A stretch of 64,000 nucleotides of DNA from Thalassospira sp. GTDB lineage: Bacteria > Pseudomonadota > Alphaproteobacteria > Rhodospirillales > Thalassospiraceae. The translations under genes were made by a program, and so were the position numbers. The DNA lies in contig NZ_JAUYHK010000005.1 of the NCBI RefSeq assembly GCF_030690045.1, positions 1 through 64,000 of the forward strand. The letters are read 5' to 3'. Under the pieces are notes generated by a model. The model was not told where the DNA came from. It saw nothing but the letters and a program-made list of their open reading frames with translations, and did no database searches. This document shows positions 45,092 through 55,211 of the stretch, piece by piece; within the stretch, counting starts at the first letter, position 1; each line of letters begins with the position of its first letter.

Positions 45092-46327
45092 TCACATCGC
45101 CAGCGCAACCCATCCCCATGCCAACACCAAGCTGATCAGTGTCACCGGAATACCGATACGGGCATAATCGCCAAAGGTAATGATCACGCCCAATGCCCTG
45201 GCGCGTTCCACTGCAATGATGTTGGCAACACTGCCGACAATCAGAAAATTTCCTGACAGCGTGCTGAAAATCGCCAACCCATACAGCATGTTTTCCGACC
45301 ATTCCGGTCCCAGCGGCAACAGCAGCATCACCAGCGGCACATTGCCAATCGTATTGCTACCGATCAGTGATAACGCTGCCAAAACGCCCGAAGCATCAAT
45401 TTGCAACCCGGCCAGAATGCCGCGAAACAGCCCGGAGATATCGGGGTTTTGCGCCATTGCACCGGTCACAATAAACAGGCAGGAAAACAGGGCGAGCAAA
45501 TGCCAGTCCACCATGCCCAACACCCGGTCGGTTCCCAGTTTACGGCTGAGCAATAACATCGCGACAATCAAAAGCGACCATGTGGCGCGGTCTTCGACAA
45601 AGACAAAAATCATCAGAAGGGCCATGGTCGCCAGCACTGCCTTCAGCAACACCGGCCGGTCCAGCACAACCTGATCTGCATCCGGCAGGCTTGCCGGTGC
45701 GATAACGGCGTGGTTGCCGTCCATCAGACGGCTTTTGGCAATCACACCATACACCATCGCCATCGCCATCACGGCAGGAATGCCACAGGCAAGGATAAAA
45801 TCCCCGAAATCCAGATTGCCAAAATGCGCAATCAACAGGTTTTGCGGATTCCCGATCAGGGTCGCCGCCGACCCGGCATTGGCGGCACAGGCCACCGCAA
45901 TAATATAGGCACGCGGGTCCAGTCCCCGATTCATCAGCCCTTTGATCAGGATCGGTGTCATCGCCCACACCACCACATCATTGGTCATCAGGGCGGATAA
46001 TGTGCCCGAAACCACAATCACCCCGGCCAAAAGACCATTGGACGACAATTTCATATGGGTAATGCGATTGCCGATCCAGTCGAAAAAGCCGCTGGCGGCA
46101 TATTGCGCCGAAACCACCATCAGGGTCAGCAATACAGACAGGGTATGAAAATCAATACTGCCCAGCGCATCGGGGCCGGATACCGCCCCGGCGACAAACA
46201 AAATCACCGCGCCAATCATCGCAACCCCGGTGCGATTGATCGCAAGCCCCGGCCACCTTCCCAGTGCCATACCGGTATAAACCGCCGCAAACACCGCAAT
46301 GATCAGCCAGTCCATCCCCGTCCCCAT
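45092..46327 (-). CDS. ArsB/NhaD superfamily anion permease
   Basis: A 411-residue integral membrane protein with about eleven hydrophobic helices. The two hairpin-associated motifs of the superfamily are visible: SALMTNDVVVWAMTPI with NAGSAATLIGNPQNLL (about 115-175), and LIGSNTIGNVPLVMLLLP with SGNFLIVGSVANIIAVE (about 325-385). The substrate could be an anion such as arsenite, a dicarboxylate or Na+/H+, and cannot be told. It follows the U32 gene tail-to-tail and precedes a RiPP locus on the same strand with an 87-base gap. A role in that locus is possible but unproven. Confidence 0.8.
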   Translation of the reverse strand: MGTGMDWLIIAVFAAVYTGMALGRWPGLAINRTGVAMIGAVILFVAGAVSGPDALGSIDFHTLSVLLTLMVVSAQYAASGFFDWIGNRITHMKLSSNGLLAGVIVVSGTLSALMTNDVVVWAMTPILIKGLMNRGLDPRAYIIAVACAANAGSAATLIGNPQNLLIAHFGNLDFGDFILACGIPAVMAMAMVYGVIAKSRLMDGNHAVIAPASLPDADQVVLDRPVLLKAVLATMALLMIFVFVEDRATWSLLIVAMLLLSRKLGTDRVLGMVDWHLLALFSCLFIVTGAMAQNPDISGLFRGILAGLQIDASGVLAALSLIGSNTIGNVPLVMLLLPLGPEWSENMLYGLAIFSTLSGNFLIVGSVANIIAVERARALGVIITFGDYARIGIPVTLISLVLAWGWVALAM

Positions 46328-46984: not shown

Positions 46985-48415
46985 TTATTGCAACGGCCCG
47001 CTATCGCCGCCCGCCATCACCGGCACCTGACGGCCATTCAGAACAAATTCGCCAATTGCGGCTTCTTCGTCTTCGGGCAGGCCGGTGGCAATCGCAAACA
47101 GGGCAGAATCCCCACCTCCAACCGCACAGGGCGACAGTCCCATATCCTCGGCCACCAGATAGAATGTTTCCATCGCCACCCCGACATGCAGCATCGACAG
47201 GCGATAGGCCACCCCCTGATATTTCCACGCCAACCTTAATAACCGGGACGCCATGATAATCACACAATCGGGCAAGTCACCGGCCTGCCCCATGCCACCT
47301 GCCGCCCCGGCGAGCATGGCCCGTACATAAGGCGGGTTCGCAGGCAGGGCATAAAGCGCATGATCACCGCCATGATATTGATACAGTCCCGGTTCCAGCC
47401 CGTCACAGCGATGGACCGCAATATAGAATTCCAGTTCATGGATCGACCCGCCCGAAGGCATCGGTCGTTTCAGCAATTCCTGCTCGCCCCCCATCATCTG
47501 GCCTCGGACCGAGACCGTCCGCCACAAAAACACCCCCAGATCGGCAAGTGTCAGGGGGAAATCGCCAGGTAAACGAATGGAACGCCGGGTTTCCATCACG
47601 CTGTTAAGCGGGCGGGATCGCGGGGTATCTTCGCTGTCGCGCAGGCGGGGCAAGGTAATCTTGCGGTCTGACATTGCCGGTTTTTGGGCGGGCGGCGACG
47701 CAAGGTTGTCTTTCAACCGGTAATTCATCCCAAGACGCGCCGATCCCAGAAAAGATCGCGATCCGGCGTGAAACACCCGATCATGAAATTCCCATGCCTG
47801 CCGGGATGGCGTATCGGTTGCCTCATGTTCCAGAAACCCGGCACACCACAGGAAATGCCAAAAAGCGGATGACGTGCCGGATGCAGAACGGGCAAACGCT
47901 ATCGGCAGTAAATCCTGCCCTGCCCCGGTAAAGCGTAATGCCGCATGATATTCGGGGTTTTCCAAAAGAACGGCATCCCCATCGCGCCGCATAAAGGCAA
48001 AGCGCGATAAAACCGCCCCGTCGGGCACCGGATCCGGTTTGAATTTGGGATAAAACAACCGGGATCGGGGATCAAGGAAACATAGCGGCTGTTGTGTCGT
48101 GCCAAACCACCAGCGCACCATGTCATTCTGCGTCAGGCGACGCAGCAAAACGTCGGTAGTTTTGGCAACATCCCCGTCAGAAAGCCCAGGATCAAGATCG
48201 GTCACCGCCCGCCGCAAATCAGGCACAGACATGCCCGCCGTTTCCGGCATCCGCCCGACCAGTTCCGCCAAACCAGCATCGGACCACGGTAATTCATTGC
48301 TGGTCCCGCCCTGAAAATGCACCGTCAGCACCGCCCGTTCACCATCATACGAAATGCCGGTAATCAGCGGCGACAGCATCATCCCGAAAAACGGTTCGGA
48401 CGTCTGGAATGTCAT
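46985..48415 (-). CDS. SagB-type FMN-dependent dehydrogenase (azoline oxidase)
   Basis: A 476-residue protein of the SagB/ThcOx nitroreductase family. A poorly conserved N-terminal half (about 1-265) precedes the flavin domain, which starts at ETRRSIRLPGDFPLTLADLGVFLWRT and includes RPMPSGGSIHELEFYIAV, GLYQYHGGDHAL and AVGGGDSALFAIATGLPEDEEAAIG. Such enzymes oxidise thiazolines/oxazolines made by YcaO enzymes to aromatic azoles. It starts 12 bases after the YcaO-fusion stop (GTG at 48418 is an alternative start), so the two are one operon. The large N-terminal region is longer than in minimal SagB proteins. Confidence 0.88.
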   Translation of the reverse strand: MTFQTSEPFFGMMLSPLITGISYDGERAVLTVHFQGGTSNELPWSDAGLAELVGRMPETAGMSVPDLRRAVTDLDPGLSDGDVAKTTDVLLRRLTQNDMVRWWFGTTQQPLCFLDPRSRLFYPKFKPDPVPDGAVLSRFAFMRRDGDAVLLENPEYHAALRFTGAGQDLLPIAFARSASGTSSAFWHFLWCAGFLEHEATDTPSRQAWEFHDRVFHAGSRSFLGSARLGMNYRLKDNLASPPAQKPAMSDRKITLPRLRDSEDTPRSRPLNSVMETRRSIRLPGDFPLTLADLGVFLWRTVSVRGQMMGGEQELLKRPMPSGGSIHELEFYIAVHRCDGLEPGLYQYHGGDHALYALPANPPYVRAMLAGAAGGMGQAGDLPDCVIIMASRLLRLAWKYQGVAYRLSMLHVGVAMETFYLVAEDMGLSPCAVGGGDSALFAIATGLPEDEEAAIGEFVLNGRQVPVMAGGDSGPLQ

Positions 48416-48427
48416 CACAAAAAGACC

Positions 48428-50701
48428 CTAAAGGAAAAAGTTAACAGGGTTAAGATCGTGTTCGTCCAATGGCCGATCCAGAACCCCCATGCGCACCGGG
48501 GCCTCGGTCAGGCGGCCAGGCGCGCGCCGGTTCCAGAAATGCCGCAATCCGGGCACAACAACCCGCACGCAATTAAGGGGCAAATCCTTGCGGCTGTAAT
48601 CCACTACGATAAAATCGTGACCTGCCTGTGCCACACGATCAACGCCATGTTGCACCGCCTGATCGATGCTGTCGAAATTATGGGCAGGCATATCGGCCAC
48701 CGTGATCATGCCATCGGGTTTCAGATAGGGATGTTCGTCCAGGCTGGCCTGATCAATCCAGTGCCAAAGCGCATCATCGACCAGATTATTGGCTGTGCGT
48801 TGTGTATCGGGGGTCAAATCAAACAGGATAATCTGGTGAATTTCGGTCAGGGCGCGCAAGGCAGCGATACGACCATCGATATGCGCGCCAAATCCGGTCA
48901 GGATACGACGGCCATCAAACGTTGACGATACCGCCACCACCACCGGAATCCCCAGATCGGTGGTGATATCAAGCAACCAGATATCGCGCCCCAGACTGCG
49001 ATAATAATCGCACACCCGCGTCACATAAGCATCATCCAGCCCCTCGAACGAGATTTGCCGGACACGCAGCCGGTTATACCACCAGATCGCCACCGCATCG
49101 CGCTCCACCACTTCAAGAAAGCCCTGCAAAATAGCTTCTTCGATGCTGCCGCCTGTTGCACAGCCATTGGAATCGGCCCAGCAGAATTTATGATCACCCG
49201 GCACAATATCGTTGGGATATTGAAAAAAACAAAACCGGCTGGGTAGCCAGCGTGCGGCATCATCACGCAGCGACCATGCCGGACTCCAGTCAATCAGTGC
49301 AGCTTCATCAAACGGATCGGGGATGCGGCCCATCGCGCTGATTGTCCTGTTCAATTCAGCCCTGTTTTCATATTGAAAATCGCTAAATTGCAAAAATTCC
49401 TGCGGATGTGGGGCCCACTCGGCCATATCCTGCCAGCTTGCCTGTCGGCGCGACTCACTGCCAACCCATTGTGCGCCATACCGCTCCACCGCCTCGGCCA
49501 GACAGCTTATTTTTGCCTGTACCGCACTTAACCCCTTGCCCGCCGCCCCGCCGGGGCGGCCAAGGGTGCGGTTCTGACGCGGGTCAATCGCCGCCCGATT
49601 GCCTTGAGATGCGCTATAGACATGCAACCCTTCGGCCAAGACGACCGGTTGTATATGGGAAACGATCCCGGTAATCGGACTGACGATGGGTTCCAGCCGC
49701 GAAAGCGCCTGTTCCGGCGAAAGGGTGCGCCACCCGCCATCGGCTCCGTCATGGTTTTTAACCGGTGACAACCGGATCGGTTTGGCTTCGACCGTTGCCT
49801 CTGCCCCGCCCTGTACGCTGTCCTGTACCGGGCAATCGTCAAATAACGGCACGCCGTGCAAATCACGCTGCCCATCGGCAACTGCCCAGGTCATCAGGCG
49901 CTGTTCGACCAATTTCGATTGGCCAAGGGCAAAGCGGGTCAGTTCCAGCGTCGCCTGACCGTGTGCAATCGCCAATGTTGCCGGAATCCATGCCTTTGCC
50001 GACCGGGCACCGGTCATGGTCGGTGCCACCACATGTTCGCTCGGTCGATGTTCGGCCAAACGCCGCGCCAGACAAAAATAACAATTATGGTCGCCATCAT
50101 GGGTGCCCATCAACGGCCCGAACCATGCCGACATGCCACCCGGCTTGAACGGAATCCACACTTGCTTGCGCCGTGCTGCCGACCGGGCAAAATCATTCAG
50201 ACCCGGTTGCAAATAATCCTCGACCAGCACAATCGACACATGGGCGTTTTTATGATCGCTGATGCAAAAACCCGCCGCCATCAGCATGGCACTCAAGTGC
50301 GATGCCTGTACCGATCCGGCCGGGCCATCCTTGCCCAGCGGCACCACCGCCACCCGGTATTGCGCCAAATGATTTTCGCAATCGACCGGCGGCAGGTTCT
50401 GCGCACTCCAGAATGCCGAACGCGCACTGTCGGCCCACGGTTCCACCGGCACGACATACCGTTTCGCCAGCATGGTATCAATCAGGCCATTGATGTCCTC
50501 GACGGTCGCACTCCCGGCCAACTGTTCAATAATTTGCGCCCGGTTATACCGGCCATCCAGCAAGGGCATGATCATCACATACCCCGCCCCGGACAACCGG
50601 AAACTCTGATCCTCGGACAACAGCATGAACTGGTCATCACCCATGCGATGCACGTTGAAATGCGGTGCGACCGCCAGATAATGATTGGTATTCTGTCCCA
50701 T
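48428..50701 (-). CDS. fused RRE/E1-like leader-binding and YcaO azoline synthase (TOMM cyclodehydratase)
   Basis: A 757-residue RiPP enzyme. Residues about 10-90 look like the PqqD-like precursor-recognition domain (FNVHRMGDDQFMLLSE to TMLAKRYVV). Residues about 110-330 are an E1-like partner region with a zinc-type CYFC (207-210). Residues about 360-757 are the YcaO domain, with ATP-binding motifs GKGLSAVQAKISCLAEAVER and TGGSIEEAILQGFLEVVERD. It would use ATP to cyclise Cys/Ser/Thr of a precursor. The C-terminus ends LNPVNFFL instead of the usual Pro-rich PxPxP tail. It is divergent from the repeat protein at 51015-52532, its likely substrate. A GC-rich hairpin in its 5' leader may affect expression. 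Confidence 0.9.
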   Translation of the reverse strand: MGQNTNHYLAVAPHFNVHRMGDDQFMLLSEDQSFRLSGAGYVMIMPLLDGRYNRAQIIEQLAGSATVEDINGLIDTMLAKRYVVPVEPWADSARSAFWSAQNLPPVDCENHLAQYRVAVVPLGKDGPAGSVQASHLSAMLMAAGFCISDHKNAHVSIVLVEDYLQPGLNDFARSAARRKQVWIPFKPGGMSAWFGPLMGTHDGDHNCYFCLARRLAEHRPSEHVVAPTMTGARSAKAWIPATLAIAHGQATLELTRFALGQSKLVEQRLMTWAVADGQRDLHGVPLFDDCPVQDSVQGGAEATVEAKPIRLSPVKNHDGADGGWRTLSPEQALSRLEPIVSPITGIVSHIQPVVLAEGLHVYSASQGNRAAIDPRQNRTLGRPGGAAGKGLSAVQAKISCLAEAVERYGAQWVGSESRRQASWQDMAEWAPHPQEFLQFSDFQYENRAELNRTISAMGRIPDPFDEAALIDWSPAWSLRDDAARWLPSRFCFFQYPNDIVPGDHKFCWADSNGCATGGSIEEAILQGFLEVVERDAVAIWWYNRLRVRQISFEGLDDAYVTRVCDYYRSLGRDIWLLDITTDLGIPVVVAVSSTFDGRRILTGFGAHIDGRIAALRALTEIHQIILFDLTPDTQRTANNLVDDALWHWIDQASLDEHPYLKPDGMITVADMPAHNFDSIDQAVQHGVDRVAQAGHDFIVVDYSRKDLPLNCVRVVVPGLRHFWNRRAPGRLTEAPVRMGVLDRPLDEHDLNPVNFFL

Positions 50702-51014
50702 GAACCGGTCTTTGCCGGTTTTGATACCGGCCCCTCTTTTGGGCGGGAGCAGCCCCGCCTTGTGTTGTTTGTTTTATACGGGCCTGATGCCCGCTAATTT
50801 ACCGGCATCTCAATCATCCGGCAGTTGCATCATTTTCAATCATGGCGTAGACTAGTGCAACAAAAAGTCTTGGGGGTTCAACAAGATAAATTAAAATTAC
50901 GTCAGATGCCACGATGCCCGGATATCCCCTTTCAGGATTTCCGGTTTGTATTTGTGATTCCGTCGGGGGAACAGTCCGGTCGACGTGAACAATTGTTCAG
51001 GAGTAGCAGGGATT
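50702..51014. other. divergent intergenic region between YcaO fusion and repeat precursor
   Basis: These 313 bases must hold both promoters of the RiPP locus. A GC-rich inverted repeat (GGCGGG-agcag-CCCGCC type, around 50741-50760) lies in the YcaO-side leader. A perfect 14-base palindrome lies at 50986-50999 on the precursor side. No gene is visible. Confidence 0.5.
50986..50999. promoter_or_regulatory. perfect palindrome next to the precursor Shine-Dalgarno
   Basis: TGAACAATTGTTCA is a perfect 14-base palindrome ending 15 bases before the precursor ATG. It adjoins CAGGAGTAGCAGGG, which contains the SD. It could be a repressor operator, or a small hairpin controlling ribosome access. Confidence 0.45.
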
Positions 51015-52532
51015 ATGACAAACAACAATTCCACACGAGCCGGTCATGTACCGCCCCCGATTTTCTGTCATTTTAGCGAAGATGAAGAACTCGCTGCGGG
51101 TGCTTATCCGCCACCCTGCGGCTTTCCGTGCCGTATCAGCGATGACGAAAATCTCGCGGCACAATCCGGGTCTGCACCGAATCCGCACTCCATGTGCCTA
51201 GTTCCTCCTTGCACGATCAAAGACGAAGAACTGGCTGCGGGTTCTTATCCGCCGCCCTGCGGCATTCCGTGCCGCATCAGCGATGACGAAAATCTTGCTG
51301 CACAGTCAGCACCGATGCCCTGCACTTTTTCGCGCATCAGCGATGATGACAATCTGAATGTTTCGGGTTCCCCCCGTCCCTGCGCGCCCTGCTTTGTCGG
51401 CTCGGACGAAGAACTCGCTGCGGGCGCCGTCCCGCCGCCCTGCGGCATTCCGTGCCGCATCAGCGAAGATAACAATCTTTCCCCGCGGCCCCCGTTGCCC
51501 TGCTTTCCATGCCGCATCAGTGATGATGAGAATCTCATGGCACAGCCAACACCGATGCACTGGACCTTTTCGCGCATCAGCGATGATGACAATCTGAGTG
51601 CCTTGGCTTCCCCCCGCCCCTGCGCACCCTGTTTTGTCGGCTCGGATGAAGAACTTGCTGCGGGTGCTGTTCCGCCACCCTGCATGTTGCCGTGCCGCAT
51701 CACCGAAGACAACAATCTTTCCCCATACCCCCCCACACCTTTGCCCTGCTTCCCGTGCCGCATCAATGATGATGCGACAGATACCTTGGCCGCTTCGGGC
51801 ATAGACAATGTTCCGGCTCCGGCTCTCGGGCGCTTTAGCTATGACGAACAGATTGAGGCCGTAAAGGCTATCCTGCCCTGCTGCTTGCCCTGCCGCATCA
51901 GTGATGATGAAAATCTGAACCTTTCGGGCTCCCCGCGTCCCTGCGCTCCTTGCTTTGTCGGTTCGGACGAAGAACTCGCTGCGGGCGCTGTTCCGCCGCC
52001 CTGCGGTTTTCCTTGCCGCATCAGCGATGATGAAAATCTTGCTGCACAGTCAGCACCGATGCCTCCTTGCATGTTTTCGCGCATCAGCGATGATGACCTG
52101 AACGCATCAGGCCCCTATCCGGGCAGATGCGGGCCTTGCGTTATCGGGGGGGAAACTCTGTCCGCTTCGGGCGCAACACATGCACCGGTTCCGATATACT
52201 CGCATATGCGCAACGATGACGATCTGAGTGTTGCGGCAGCATCAACTGTGCGTCCACCTGTCGGCTATTGCTTCATCAGCAACGATCAGGACCTTGATCT
52301 GGGCGCAGTCCGTCCGGATCAAAACTGGTGCCGTTCTTCTTATGATGAAGTCCTTGATGTAACCGCATCCGATTCACCTTTTTGCGGATTTCAATGCAGG
52401 ATCGACAGCGACAACCTGTCGCTGAACGGCGTGGCCCGTCCGCAGTGCGGACCGTGCCAACCATGTTTTGCCACCACAGACGAAAAAGTGTCATCCACCT
52501 TGTTTCCGCGTCCGGGCTCGTTCTGTTCCTGA
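51015..52532 (+). CDS. giant repetitive Cys-rich RiPP precursor-like protein
   Basis: A 505-residue protein with no known enzyme domain, built of about 23 units of 19-26 (mostly 20-21) residues. Each unit has a Pro/Cys-rich segment (PPPCGFPCRIS, PRPCAPCFVGS, PLPCFPCRIS, PMPCTFSRIS) followed by an acidic segment with a conserved Leu (DEELAAG, DDENLAAQ, EDNNLSP). The acidic-Leu positions are about 26, 47, 73, 94, 114, 134, 155, 174, 194, 214, 235 and so on to about 491. There are 38 Cys and many Ser/Thr. Only about 11 residues precede the first unit, so there is no normal leader; the acidic segments may be repeated recognition sequences. There is no signal peptide. The start ATG 51015 follows AGGAG; a GTG at 50985 is possible. 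Divergent YcaO and SagB genes imply azol(in)e formation. The last units are more diverged. A terminator follows. Confidence 0.85.
   Translation: MTNNNSTRAGHVPPPIFCHFSEDEELAAGAYPPPCGFPCRISDDENLAAQSGSAPNPHSMCLVPPCTIKDEELAAGSYPPPCGIPCRISDDENLAAQSAPMPCTFSRISDDDNLNVSGSPRPCAPCFVGSDEELAAGAVPPPCGIPCRISEDNNLSPRPPLPCFPCRISDDENLMAQPTPMHWTFSRISDDDNLSALASPRPCAPCFVGSDEELAAGAVPPPCMLPCRITEDNNLSPYPPTPLPCFPCRINDDATDTLAASGIDNVPAPALGRFSYDEQIEAVKAILPCCLPCRISDDENLNLSGSPRPCAPCFVGSDEELAAGAVPPPCGFPCRISDDENLAAQSAPMPPCMFSRISDDDLNASGPYPGRCGPCVIGGETLSASGATHAPVPIYSHMRNDDDLSVAAASTVRPPVGYCFISNDQDLDLGAVRPDQNWCRSSYDEVLDVTASDSPFCGFQCRIDSDNLSLNGVARPQCGPCQPCFATTDEKVSSTLFPRPGSFCS
51315..51794 (+). repeat. 80-residue (240-base) tandem duplication inside the precursor gene
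   Basis: Residues 101-180 and 181-260 align with almost no gap. Both run TFSRISDDDNL, SPRPCAPCFVGSDEELAAGA, then VPPPC..PCRI, EDNNLSP and LPCFPCRI; residues 121-140 and 201-220 are identical. A two-residue insertion (TP) occurs near 241. A third, partial copy is at 51924-52097 (residues about 304-361). This shows growth by block duplication of four units. Confidence 0.85.
51924..52097 (+). repeat. third partial copy of the precursor repeat block
   Basis: Residues about 304-361 repeat SGSPRPCAPCFVGSDEELA followed by the PPPCGFPCRIS and DDENLAAQSAPM units. The latter stretch also matches residues about 78-101. The shared blocks appear in different orders, pointing to recombination among units. 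Confidence 0.75.
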
Positions 52533-52583
52533 TTTCGGGCAGAATATGTCCTGACCCGTCAGGAATCAGGAAGATTTGACAGG

Positions 52584-52621
52584 GCGCGATTGCCGATTTG
52601 TTTTGGCAATCGCGCTTTTTT
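52584..52621 (+). terminator. rho-independent terminator of the precursor gene
   Basis: An 11-base perfect stem, GCGCGATTGCC/GGCAATCGCGC, with a ten-base loop, followed by TTTTTT. It lies about 50 bases after the precursor stop and isolates it from the GNAT gene. Confidence 0.92.
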
Positions 52622-52678: not shown

Positions 52679-53599
52679 ATGACCACTATTCTGCCCCTGC
52701 CCTGTCAGATTGTTGAATATGATCCGTCCTGCATGAAAGACATGCTGCGCGAACTGGTGGCGGAATGGGGCGGGAATGATCCGGCCTCGCATTTTTATAA
52801 TTTCTGGCAATCGCTGATCACCGAACCGCACAAAAGCATGGAAGTCGTTTTATTGGCCGTCAATGATGATCAGGCCGTTGGCATGGCCTTTGCCAACTGG
52901 CGTCCCTATCGGGATGAAAATTCGCGATCAGTTGTATTTCTTGTCGCCAATGATTGTCAGAAAAAAGGGGTCGGTACTGCCCTTAAGAACGGCATGGATT
53001 CCGCCTTTCGCAAACGCGGCCTGATCAGTCAGGTCGCCATGCTCAGTGAAACATCACTCGATACCGCCGGTTTTTTCGAGAAAACCGGCTTTGTCCCCGA
53101 AGAAGACGTGGTGCGGCTGGAATGGAAAGGTGATGCCTATTCCTATAAAGAAGTCCCCGGCCTGACCCTGCATCTCTATGACAGCACCTGTCTTGATGAC
53201 AGGATCAATGCCGAACTGGCCGAATTTTACAATCGCGCCTATGCCAATGAAGGATTATGCCCCCGGTTTACCGGCGAGCATATCCGCCGTCTGATCTCCG
53301 ACGATAACGCATGGATGATCTATGCCCGCGATGACGCCACCAGCCAGATTGCCGCCTATACCGAATGCACCAATACGCCCCTGTTTTCCGGCATTGCGGT
53401 TCTACGTCCGTGGTGGGGAACCGGGCTTGCCGAATGGATTGGCGGCTATACGGTCGATCTGTATCGTGAACGGGGTTTTGACTCGTTATGGTGCATTGCC
53501 CGGCGCAGCAACGCCGCCTCGATCCGGTTGCAAAAACGCATGGGTTGGCATGTTACTGGTGCCTGTCCGCATTACATCGCCACGGTTCCAACAACCTGA
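52679..53599 (+). CDS. tandem GNAT-domain N-acetyltransferase
   Basis: A 306-residue protein with two GNAT-like halves. The first (about 1-160) contains VFLVANDCQKKGVGTALKNGM, an acetyl-CoA loop (Q/RxxGxG/A type), then ETSLDTAGFFEKTGFVPEED. The second (about 165-300) contains VLRPWWGTGLAEWIGGYTVDLY and RRSNAASIRLQKRMGWHVTG. The second loop is degenerate. It follows the repeat precursor on the same strand but behind a terminator. It could be a tailoring or self-protection enzyme for the RiPP, or unrelated. The substrate is unknown. Confidence 0.75.
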   Translation: MTTILPLPCQIVEYDPSCMKDMLRELVAEWGGNDPASHFYNFWQSLITEPHKSMEVVLLAVNDDQAVGMAFANWRPYRDENSRSVVFLVANDCQKKGVGTALKNGMDSAFRKRGLISQVAMLSETSLDTAGFFEKTGFVPEEDVVRLEWKGDAYSYKEVPGLTLHLYDSTCLDDRINAELAEFYNRAYANEGLCPRFTGEHIRRLISDDNAWMIYARDDATSQIAAYTECTNTPLFSGIAVLRPWWGTGLAEWIGGYTVDLYRERGFDSLWCIARRSNAASIRLQKRMGWHVTGACPHYIATVPTT

Positions 53600-54077
53600 C
53601 AAAACATCCCGAAACAGGATCATCCACCCCGGAAAACGGCCCTGTGGGCCGCGTCGGGTTTTACCCTGCTGCCTCATAGCTTTACCCCCCGATAAAAAAC
53701 TTTTCCAAACCCGCAAAAACCGCTTGCGTCCCCCAAAAAACAGGCGTAGAGACCGACTTGCCCAAAGTCGCACGTGCCTGTGGTGGTCCTGCTTCAAGAA
53801 CCCTGTAGGACTTACTTAAAGCAACGACGGTGTAGGGCTTTTTTGGTCTCAGGTGGTTGTCCAAATCCACCGACACTGAAGAGGCACACCATCATTGCCC
53901 GCCGTGCGGAATGGCAGATTTCCCCATTCTTATATCGAGGCAACTTTCGCGAGCCCGGACGCATCCGGGTTCACGCCTGGCATACCGATAGTCCGCGATC
54001 TTGCGCCTCCACCGCGTTTGGTCGCATCAGGTGTCGGCCTGCTGTCATACATATAAGTGGAATGGGAGAACGCCCCC
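53600..54077 (+). other. long leader region of the ornithine decarboxylase gene
   Basis: These 478 bases without a supported gene precede odc. The left part contains a weak GC-rich hairpin (CGGCCC-TGT-GGGCCG, 53637-53651) just after the GNAT gene, possibly its terminator. The right part is rich in inverted repeats (see 53774-53887). Many alphaproteobacterial odc genes carry a large conserved leader RNA, the speF motif. Confidence 0.45.
53774..53887 (+). ncRNA. candidate structured odc leader RNA (speF-motif-like)
   Basis: An outer pairing GTGCCT (53774-53779) with AGGCAC (53882-53887) encloses two hairpins: GTCCT (53786-53790)/AGGAC (53807-53811) and GGTGG (53852-53856)/CCACC (53867-53871). 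This suggests a multi-branched leader 190-300 bases before the ornithine decarboxylase start. The speF RNA motif is known upstream of this gene in alphaproteobacteria. I cannot align to its covariance model, so identity is tentative. A polyamine-responsive role is conceivable. Confidence 0.4.
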
Positions 54078-55211
54078 ATGGCAACGCAGCGTATACTCGA
54101 CTTCATCGCACAGCAGCGTCCGGAAGGCCCTTGCCTTGTTGTCGATCTTGACGTGGTTCAGCGCAACTACGAAACCTTTACCCGCGCCCTGCCGGATTCC
54201 CGCATTTTTTATGCGGTCAAATCCAACCCGGCCCCCGAAGTTCTGAGCCTGCTGGCCGATCTTGGCAGTTGCTTTGACACTGCATCGGTGCCGGAAATCG
54301 AAATGGCAATGGCCGCCGGTGCGACACCGGACCGTATTTCGTTTGGCAATACCATCAAAAAAGAACGCGACATTGCGCGTGCTTATGAAATGGGCGTGCG
54401 CCTTTACGCCGTTGATTGCGTCGAAGAAGTCGAAAAGATCGCCCGCGTTGCCCCGGCATCGCGTGTATTCTGCCGCATTCTGACCGACGGTGCCGGTGCC
54501 GAATGGCCCCTGTCGCGCAAATTCGGTTGCGCACCGACAATGGCGCTGGATGTTTTGCAGCATGCCCATCACATGGGTCTGGATGCTTATGGTGTGTCAT
54601 TCCATGTCGGGTCGCAGCAATGCAATCTGGGCGCATGGGATACTGCCCTTGCCGAAGCTGCGATGATTTTCCGCACCCTGGCCGAAAAAGGCATCAATCT
54701 GCACATGGTCAATATGGGCGGCGGCTTTCCGACCCGTTATCTGCGCGATGTTCCGTCCACCGAAACCTATGGTGCTGCCATCGTCGATGCCCTGCACACC
54801 CATTTTGGCAATCACATGCCCGAAACCATTATCGAACCGGGCCGTGGCATGGTTGGGGATGCGGGCGTGATCAAGGCCGAAGTCGTGCTGATTTCGCGCA
54901 AACATGCCGATGATCCGGTGCGCTGGGTTTATCTGGATATTGGCAAATTCGGTGGCCTTGCCGAAACCATGGACGAAGCCATCCGTTACCCGATCACCAC
55001 CCTTCGGGATGGCGATGATGTTTCGCCCTGCGTCATTGCCGGTCCGACCTGTGATTCAGCGGACGTTTTGTATGAAAAAAATCCATATAATCTGCCGGTT
55101 TCCTTGACGATTGGCGACGAAGTGCTGATTGAGGCAACCGGTGCCTATACCACCACCTATGCATCGGTGGCGTTTAACGGTTTCTCGCCGTTGACCGCCT
55201 ATGTGATCTAG
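54078..55211 (+). CDS. ornithine/lysine decarboxylase (alanine-racemase fold)
   Basis: A 377-residue PLP decarboxylase of the eukaryote-like odc type. The PLP lysine is in RIFYAVKSNPAPEVL (about residue 45). Other motifs are GVSFHVGSQQCN (His stacking on PLP), MGGGFPTRY (Gly-rich loop), IIEPGRGMVGDAG and AGPTCDSADVLYE (catalytic Cys of the partner subunit, about residue 330). It makes putrescine from ornithine, possibly cadaverine from lysine. The ATG at 54078 follows GGGAGAA. A GNAT gene follows ten bases later, an arrangement common in alphaproteobacteria. Confidence 0.92.
   Translation: MATQRILDFIAQQRPEGPCLVVDLDVVQRNYETFTRALPDSRIFYAVKSNPAPEVLSLLADLGSCFDTASVPEIEMAMAAGATPDRISFGNTIKKERDIARAYEMGVRLYAVDCVEEVEKIARVAPASRVFCRILTDGAGAEWPLSRKFGCAPTMALDVLQHAHHMGLDAYGVSFHVGSQQCNLGAWDTALAEAAMIFRTLAEKGINLHMVNMGGGFPTRYLRDVPSTETYGAAIVDALHTHFGNHMPETIIEPGRGMVGDAGVIKAEVVLISRKHADDPVRWVYLDIGKFGGLAETMDEAIRYPITTLRDGDDVSPCVIAGPTCDSADVLYEKNPYNLPVSLTIGDEVLIEATGAYTTTYASVAFNGFSPLTAYVI

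What the first reader, a model, noticed from the sequence alone, without database searches (positions are those of the whole stretch)
46985..52532. RiPP locus with a 505-residue, roughly 23-unit Cys-rich precursor divergent from YcaO-fusion and SagB genes
Seen: a repetitive protein with 38 Cys, alternating Pro/Cys-rich and acidic segments at about 20-residue period, encoded 313 bases from a fused RRE/E1/YcaO gene and a SagB-like gene. Known: YcaO plus SagB enzymes make thiazol(in)e/oxazol(in)e RiPPs from precursors usually under about 100 residues with a leader and one core. Inference: this is a multi-core or polyazole precursor in which each acidic DEELAAG/DDENLAAQ segment acts as a recognition site. 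I know of no characterised product of this architecture.
Basis: partly seen in the sequence, partly recalled or inferred. Interest (0 to 1): 0.95.

Follow-up and report, generated by a model that had tools for sequence, protein, structure and literature searches.

The report
Bacterial protein carrying 23 peptide cores
A marine bacterium of the genus Thalassospira encodes a 505-residue protein made of 23 repeated units, most of them bearing cysteines, next to two enzymes of the kind that put rings into peptides; it is likely one long precursor from which many small ring-bearing peptides would be cut, far more per chain than in the closest studied bacterial systems.

Summary
The YcaO protein is LynD/TruD-like over its full length (cyanobactin heterocyclase) and the SagB CyaGox-like, but no PatA/PatG protease passes its cut-off in 9 genomes checked. 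The repeat protein belongs to an alphaproteobacterial family of 64 to 633 aa with about 2 to 25 units. In 7 of 7 SDEDL-type loci read it lies with SagB and a two-domain GNAT acetyltransferase, in 6 of 7 also with YcaO; the one SDEALD-type locus showed neither SagB nor GNAT. In 29 genomes of the genus, precursor and GNAT occur in the same four, all with the YcaO fusion. Each unit pairs an acidic motif with a Pro/Cys core. In two groups of relatives the motif fits the L(X)4L signature that docks leaders on the YcaO RRE (32 of 34, 32 of 46 sites); in this window most copies have one residue more. Cys and Ser interchange at a fixed core position (49 of 58). Best reading: leader and core multiplied together, giving many short azol(in)e peptides. 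Chemistry, cleavage and function are untested.

The parts
51015..52532 (+). Multi-core precursor, 505 aa: N-terminal segment plus 23 units of about 21 aa
   Evidence: no Pfam, NCBIfam or PADLOC family; AlphaFold2 mean pLDDT 40.1 and no secondary structure
51015..51074 (+). N-terminal segment ending in the first core (VPPPIFCHF); an AGxxPxPxFxR-like pattern recurs at the N termini of the Thalassospira homologues
51262..51733 (+). Higher-order direct repeat (240-bp period, 83% identical copies, third copy of 70% identity at 51823-52054): units multiplied as blocks
48428..50701 (-). LynD/TruD-type cyclodehydratase: RRE (winged helix) + E1-like + YcaO, 757 aa
46985..48418 (-). SagB/ThcOx-type dehydrogenase, 477 aa
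   Evidence: CyaGox and 8pz5, E 1.1e-46
52679..53599 (+). Two-domain GNAT acetyltransferase, 306 aa, likely tailoring or immunity enzyme of the system
   Evidence: same 4 of 29 genomes as the precursor; one beside each precursor in G002 and G015
50702..51014 (.). Divergent intergenic region of 313 bases between YcaO and precursor genes
52581..52618 (+). Terminator-like hairpin (16 pairs, T-rich tail) after the precursor gene
   Evidence: consensus match

Best explanation
The 505-residue repeat protein is likely a multi-core RiPP precursor in which each of 23 units joins an acidic motif, predicted to dock on the RRE domain of the neighbouring LynD-type YcaO enzyme, to a short Pro/Cys core that this enzyme would turn into a thiazoline/oxazoline and the SagB enzyme would oxidise to a thiazole/oxazole. 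Steps: (1) an unfolded chain is made (predicted: no fold). (2) The cyclodehydratase binds the (I/V)S(D)DE-x-L motif upstream of each core as it would bind a cyanobactin leader, and cyclises the Cys, and probably the Ser, that precedes Arg at the core end (inferred from enzyme homology, motif fit and Cys/Ser interchange). (3) SagB oxidises some rings (inferred). (4) The chain is cut between units by a protease encoded elsewhere, or by the YcaO enzyme itself, as the PDB title of the relative MusD suggests (speculative). (5) The GNAT acetylates the freed N termini, as GodH does in goadsporin, or gives self-protection (inferred). Shown directly: the genes, the repeats, their homologues, the co-occurrence and the unit-number variation between related genomes.
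For: A YcaO profile aligns almost end to end with LynD (E 2.3e-161) and TruD (3.3e-161), and MusD matches too; the model (pLDDT 79.1) matches LynD with TM 0.75/0.76. SagB's best PDB matches are 8pz5 and CyaGox, both E 1.1e-46. In 29 genomes of the genus: precursor in 4, GNAT in the same 4, YcaO in those 4 plus one distant form. Class: precursor 4 of 385, all among the 15 of 385 with the YcaO fusion. SDEDL-type loci read (window, G020, G002, G015, G281, G550, G631): precursor, SagB and GNAT together in 7 of 7, YcaO in 6 of 7. Unit number varies at the same syntenic place: 505 aa here, 135 aa in G020 (YcaO 82% identical), and between near-identical homologues (P0002/P0006). Motif: hydrophobic(X)4L in 32 of 34 sites of the SDEALD group and 32 of 46 of the SDEDL group; the two Leu of L(X)4L matter for PatE/LynD binding, and in MprE7/MprC Ala abolished and Val or Phe rescued product (PMC12455567 passages). 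C or S directly before Arg in 49 of 58 distinct contexts, against 2-24 of 58 at the five positions before it and 17.6% background.
Against: No chemistry is shown. In this window 10 of 13 scored motif sites are hydrophobic(X)5L and only 3 are (X)4L; in G631 20 and 1 of 22; in the small Thalassospira precursors 8 and 3 of 19, so the RRE match is weak in the window's own kin; my hydrophobic set (I, L, V, M, F) is wider than what the paper tested. The co-occurrence is one-way: 11 of the 15 class genomes with a YcaO fusion and 6 of the 11 in the order gave no precursor hit. The SDEALD-type locus of G688 showed no SagB or GNAT. No protease or transporter that looks part of the system was found among the window's 8 scanned genes (a citrate-type transporter lies at 45092-46327) or recognised by eye in the SDEDL-type loci, whose neighbours were not all scanned. 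Extra precursors lie unlinked to YcaO in G281 (contig 123) and G688 (contig 2), and G631's YcaO is on another contig. Three of 23 units here have no Cys. G227 (74% complete) has precursor and GNAT but no YcaO found. Profiles A2 and A5 contain sequences from several of these genomes, so detection there is in-sample. The window protein alone found only 1 database protein at E <= 0.01.
Confidence: 0.7

Rival explanations
1. The modified chain is not cut: it stays whole as a poly-azole or Cys-rich protein, for example a metal-binding, redox or storage polymer, and the acidic segments are spacers or ligands.
For: No protease or peptide exporter among the window's 8 scanned genes, none recognised by eye in the other SDEDL-type loci; chains with up to 58 Cys; acidic residues could bind metal (inference).
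Against: Unit number swings from about 2 to 25 and homologues as short as 64 aa exist; cores are discrete and re-used in other genomes in different order; a GNAT, which could act on free N termini, accompanies the precursors.
Confidence: 0.15
2. Cyanobactin-like logic: only the N-terminal part is the leader, and the repeated acidic segments are cleavage or spacing signals, like RSII/RSIII.
For: Cyanobactin cores are each flanked by short repeated cleavage signals, and RSI directs heterocyclisation (PMC4663559 passages); the N-terminal segment is conserved among Thalassospira homologues; the L(X)4L fit is poor in the window and its Thalassospira kin.
Against: In two groups of relatives the segment fitting L(X)4L is the repeated one, and in P0023, P0030 and P0031 the first copy starts at residue 7-8, which leaves no room for a separate leader. 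No PatA/PatG-family protease over cut-off in 9 of 9 genomes.
Confidence: 0.2
3. The repeat protein is an unrelated Pro/Cys-rich repeat protein (surface or secreted) that merely lies beside a TOMM cluster whose true precursor was missed.
For: TOMM precursors can be missed or lie away from their enzymes (PMC4603692 passages); no family model recognises it; I did not search systematically for another small ORF shared by the loci.
Against: All genus-level (4 of 4) and class-level (4 of 4) precursor hits lie in genomes with the YcaO fusion; predicted disorder; GNAT and SagB also track it.
Confidence: 0.04

Closest known systems
Cyanobactin pathways (PatD/TruD/LynD heterocyclase + ThcOx-type oxidase)
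   Same: Full-length LynD/TruD-type RRE-E1-YcaO enzyme and CyaGox-like SagB; several cores per precursor; leader signature L(X)4L.
   Different: No PatA/PatG-family protease over cut-off; 23 units here and 25 scored sites in G631 instead of 1-4 cores; recognition-like motif repeated with each core; GNAT added; alphaproteobacteria.
NHLP/Nif11 TOMMs with fused cyclodehydratase (e.g. MprC)
   Same: LynD-like cyclodehydratase without PatA/G; L(X)4L motif (PMC12455567, PMC4603692 passages).
   Different: MprE leaders of the NHLP family are long and folded; here no fold is predicted.
Thiovarsolins (VarA)
   Same: YcaO pathway with a repeating precursor (no repeat to five repeats across the family) and no specific protease in the cluster (PMC6511847 passages).
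   Different: Thioamides via YcaO-TfuA in Actinobacteria; fewer repeats; partner here is SagB, plus GNAT.
Multi-core microviridin AMdnA and other graspetides
   Same: Several cores in one precursor; N-acetyltransferase MdnD in microviridin pathways (PMC5934393 abstract and part of the main text).
   Different: ATP-grasp macrolactones, three cores.
Fungal dikaritins / KEX2-processed repeat proteins
   Same: Precursors of repeated short cores separated by repeated signals (PMC9769878 passages).
   Different: Eukaryotic, secretory, signals are dibasic protease sites.
Goadsporin
   Same: Azole RiPP whose freed N terminus is acetylated by the GNAT enzyme GodH (PMC5303826 passages).
   Different: From Streptomyces; also carries dehydroalanines; its precursor is not of this repeat kind as far as I recall.

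Membership tests
Azol(in)e RiPP / TOMM | YcaO cyclodehydratase with leader-binding (RRE) domain | tested here: met
   PF02624, PF21084, TIGR03882 over cut-offs; TIGR03604 0.35 bits under its cut-off; LynD full-length match
Azol(in)e RiPP / TOMM | Co-encoded precursor with heterocyclisable residues | tested here: met
   38 Cys in 505 aa; Cys/Ser before Arg 49 of 58; co-occurrence
Azol(in)e RiPP / TOMM | Azoline/azole in the product | not testable with these tools
   needs co-expression and mass spectrometry
Cyanobactin | PatA/PatG-family protease and macrocyclase | tested here: not met
   TIGR03895: 0 of 9 genomes over cut-off; one weak match (63.7 bits, cut-off 421.05) in G281 on another contig
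Cyanobactin | LynD/TruD-type heterocyclase and ThcOx-type oxidase | tested here: met
Cyanobactin | RSI-bearing leader with 1-4 cores | tested here: not met
   recognition-like motif repeated with the units; 23 units here, 25 motif sites in G631
NHLP/Nif11 TOMM | Nitrile-hydratase-like or Nif11 leader | tested here: not met
   no Pfam or NCBIfam family in the window's precursor; no NCBIfam family of that kind in the 14 sequences of A4
Thiovarsolin-type | TfuA partner of YcaO | tested here: not met
   no TfuA among the window's 8 scanned genes; the whole genome was not searched for it

The most novel reading that the evidence does not exclude
A bacterial RiPP system in which the leader itself has been multiplied: every unit of about 21 residues carries its own RRE docking site plus a core, so one LynD-type enzyme turns a single open reading frame into a combinatorial set of 20 or so short N-acetylated azole peptides, and the set evolves by gain, loss and shuffling of whole leader-core cassettes. 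The same enzyme may also cut the units apart.
Probability: 0.45. Interest if true: 0.88.

Novelty: new variant of a known kind. Interest (0 to 1): 0.76.

Why it matters
The bacterial multi-core RiPP precursors that I could read about carry a few cores (1-4 in cyanobactins, 3 in AMdnA, up to 5 repeats in VarA). A family reaching 23-25 units, each with its own predicted docking site, would show how leader dependence can be repeated along one chain, make processivity of YcaO enzymes directly testable on natural substrates with 2 to 25 units, and give ready-made cassettes for making many azole peptides at once. None of the models searched recognises the family, so mining tools tuned to short single-core precursors probably miss it.

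Tried and rejected
Unrelated repeat protein: rejected on co-occurrence and disorder. Folded repeat protein: AlphaFold2 with 14 sequences gave mean pLDDT 40.1, a weak negative because the alignment of repeats is poor. Plasmid homologues of the precursor: none; the 20 plasmid records with a YcaO relative at E <= 1e-60 are all under 60% identity. Defence system: no PADLOC match in 4 proteins. RNA: only ar45 and speF, upstream of the decarboxylase gene. Solved structures resembling two short homologues: none useful. Higher taxa: 5 of 398 phylum genomes, the own one included, have a YcaO fusion at 1e-100; the other 4 were not examined for precursors. Distant YcaO fusions with other or no visible precursors (G010, G139, G140, G298-G300 in the order; 11 of 15 in the class) were set aside. 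In one search the pattern missed most SDEALD-type sites; recounted with another pattern on 16 proteins. Motif counts depend on such patterns: window sites came out as 17, 18 or 20 in different scripts.

No print record of this architecture was seen in the held library: searches. Lists were capped (for example: 15 of 400 shown, none with Thalassospira; 20 of 95; 20 of 84; 12 of 150), Thalassospira with azoline, gave 0 papers. Subscription papers are mostly not held. No paper was read whole: passages, the abstract and first part of one, otherwise listings.
Full report
What is there. The window lies in a Thalassospira genome: the related locus found by name is Thalassospira sp. MCCC 1A01428, whose contig (94,148 bases) is that of the same-genus genome G020. 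At 51015-52532 (+) a gene encodes 505 aa with 38 Cys and 72 Pro. It is an N-terminal segment plus 23 units, 20 of the 23 with Cys; acidic residues, Cys and Pro repeat with a period of 21.0 residues, reached by 0 of 2000 shuffles each. Blocks of units were multiplied at DNA level (240-bp period, 83-84% identity), and differences among copies lie mostly at third codon positions, so the protein sequence of the units seems to be under constraint. A terminator-like hairpin follows the gene.

The enzymes. The divergent gene 313 bases away encodes a 757-aa RRE-E1-YcaO fusion. A five-sequence profile matches LynD and TruD over almost the whole length (E 2.3e-161, 3.3e-161) and MusD (2e-153, best stretch from position 234), and the predicted model (pLDDT 79.1) matches LynD best (Foldseek E 5.7e-70, TM 0.75/0.76). 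The next gene is a SagB dehydrogenase whose best solved relatives are 8pz5 and CyaGox. So these are cyanobactin-type enzymes, a more precise name than 'YcaO plus SagB'. Cyanobactin proteases are missing: TIGR03895 passes its cut-off in 0 of 9 genomes, with one weak match in G281 on another contig. A fourth gene, a two-domain GNAT at 52679-53599, belongs to the set.

The family. Sequence and genome searches turned the single protein into a family. Loci were read in G020 (precursor 135 aa), G002 (142 aa plus a second of 125 aa from its inner ATG), G015 (246 plus 124 aa), G281 (86, 72 and, on another contig, 78 aa), G550 (202 aa) and G631 (633 aa, 58 Cys, 25 scored motif sites). In these six plus the window, precursor, SagB and GNAT are together in 7 of 7 and YcaO in 6 of 7 (in two frames in G550); in G631 it is on another contig. 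In G002 and G015 two precursor genes each have a GNAT of their own beside a single YcaO match in the genome and the one SagB seen in the locus, which suggests that the GNAT acts on, or protects against, the product of its neighbour. A related group with the motif SDEALD, seen in G688 and in database proteins, has an ABC transporter nearby and no SagB or GNAT detected within the 16 kb read. The database search with the window protein itself found 1 relative at E <= 0.01; the profile searches found 14 and 29 at E <= 0.1; in all three only the best-sharing candidates, about 8000, were scored.

Co-occurrence. In 29 genomes of the genus the precursor profile hits 4, the GNAT the same 4 and the YcaO fusion those 4 plus the distant form of G010, which is the Thalassospira marina replicon NZ_CP024200.1 by identical coordinates and length. 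In the class the precursor hits 4 of 385, all among the 15 of 385 with the YcaO fusion. In the order it hits 6 of 314: five carry the YcaO fusion (11 of 317); G227, 74% complete, has a precursor fragment and a GNAT 49% identical to the window's on a 1.7-kb stretch but no YcaO was found. The relation is one-way: 11 of the 15 class genomes and 6 of the 11 order genomes with a YcaO fusion gave no precursor hit; these are mostly the more distant fusions, and at least two of them (G139, G140) have what look like precursors of another kind beside YcaO (by eye). The profiles include sequences from several of the hit genomes, so those hits are not independent; G631 and G227 are. Unlinked extra precursors exist in G281 and G688.

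Anatomy of a unit. Anchored on the motif, the motif columns are the more conserved ones (G631: entropy 0-1.3 bits from -5 to 0 against 1.4-3.1 from +5 to +12; window: 0-1.9 against 1.6-2.7); this is partly by construction, since the pattern that anchors them asks for acidic residues and Leu. In the SDEALD group 32 of 34 distinct sites fit hydrophobic(X)4L, in the shorter SDEDL group 32 of 46. This is the L(X)4L signature of leaders that bind the RRE of LynD and MprC; for MprE7 Val and Phe were tolerated (PMC12455567, passages). In this window 3 of 13 scored sites fit it and 10 of 13 have one more residue; in G631 1 and 20 of 22; in the small Thalassospira precursors 3 and 8 of 19. So the repeated docking site is well supported in those two groups and only plausible in the window and its Thalassospira kin. 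Three relatives (P0023, P0030, P0031) start with a motif at residue 7-8 and have no room for another leader. Two Cys per unit is commonest (81 of 170 units scored). The residue directly before Arg is Cys or Ser in 49 of 58 distinct contexts (46 of 56 with a partly different set), the swap expected of a cyclised position. Cores such as PPPCGFPCR and PMPCTFSR are shared between the window, G631 and database proteins in different orders.

Mechanism. Shown: genes, repeats, homology, co-occurrence, unit-number variation. Inferred: RRE docking of each motif, ring formation at Cys/Ser, oxidation by SagB, cutting by an unlinked protease, N-acetylation by the GNAT as for GodH (PMC5303826 passages). A speculative alternative for cutting is the enzyme itself: the PDB title of entry 7u58 (MusD) is 'YcaO-mediated ATP-dependent peptidase activity in ribosomal peptide biosynthesis' (title only). 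The product's activity is unknown; nothing here says whether it is an antibiotic, a metal binder or a signal.

Comparison. Cyanobactin precursors carry 1-4 cores, with heterocyclisation directed by RSI (PMC4663559 passages); VarA has up to five repeats (PMC6511847 passages); AMdnA three cores (PMC5934393 abstract and first part). The enzymes look like cyanobactin enzymes, but the system fails two defining features of cyanobactins (proteases, precursor plan), so I do not file it as one. It meets the genetic definition of an azole RiPP cluster; the chemical one is untested. I place it as a new variant of a known kind.

Noticed in passing
window 53760-53983 (+): Rfam matches to sRNA ar45 (53760-53842) and the speF leader (53851-53983), upstream of a PLP-dependent decarboxylase gene at 54057-55211.
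   Followed up: no
L011 (G010, Thalassospira marina replicon NZ_CP024200.1): A hybrid cluster: distant YcaO fusion, a ThcOx/nitroreductase-cytochrome P450 fusion (919 aa), a LanM-like protein (DUF4135 + LANC_like, 1060 aa) and a pro-kumamolisin/S8 peptidase.
   Followed up: partly
L044 9157-12312 (G688): SDEALD-type precursor ORFs among small proteins that look alike; the one scanned resembles DUF697 below its cut-off, perhaps immunity. YcaO reads in several frames here.
   Followed up: partly
L042 5622-7930 (G550): The YcaO gene is split into two reading frames near residue 640, by a frameshift or an assembly error, although precursor and SagB frames are open and GNAT matches lie in one frame.
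   Followed up: no
L043 3240-3371 (G695): A 43-aa ORF with one GDEALD motif followed by a Cys-rich tail, a candidate single-core relative of the multi-core precursors.
   Followed up: no
L009 10306-10842 (G002): 178-aa protein with about a dozen GG-L/M-ST repeats (GGLSTLKY-type), close to the RiPP locus, unrelated in look.
   Followed up: no
L041 6426-7064 (G631): A short ORF that looks like a single-domain GNAT (by eye, not scanned) next to the unlinked YcaO gene.
   Followed up: no
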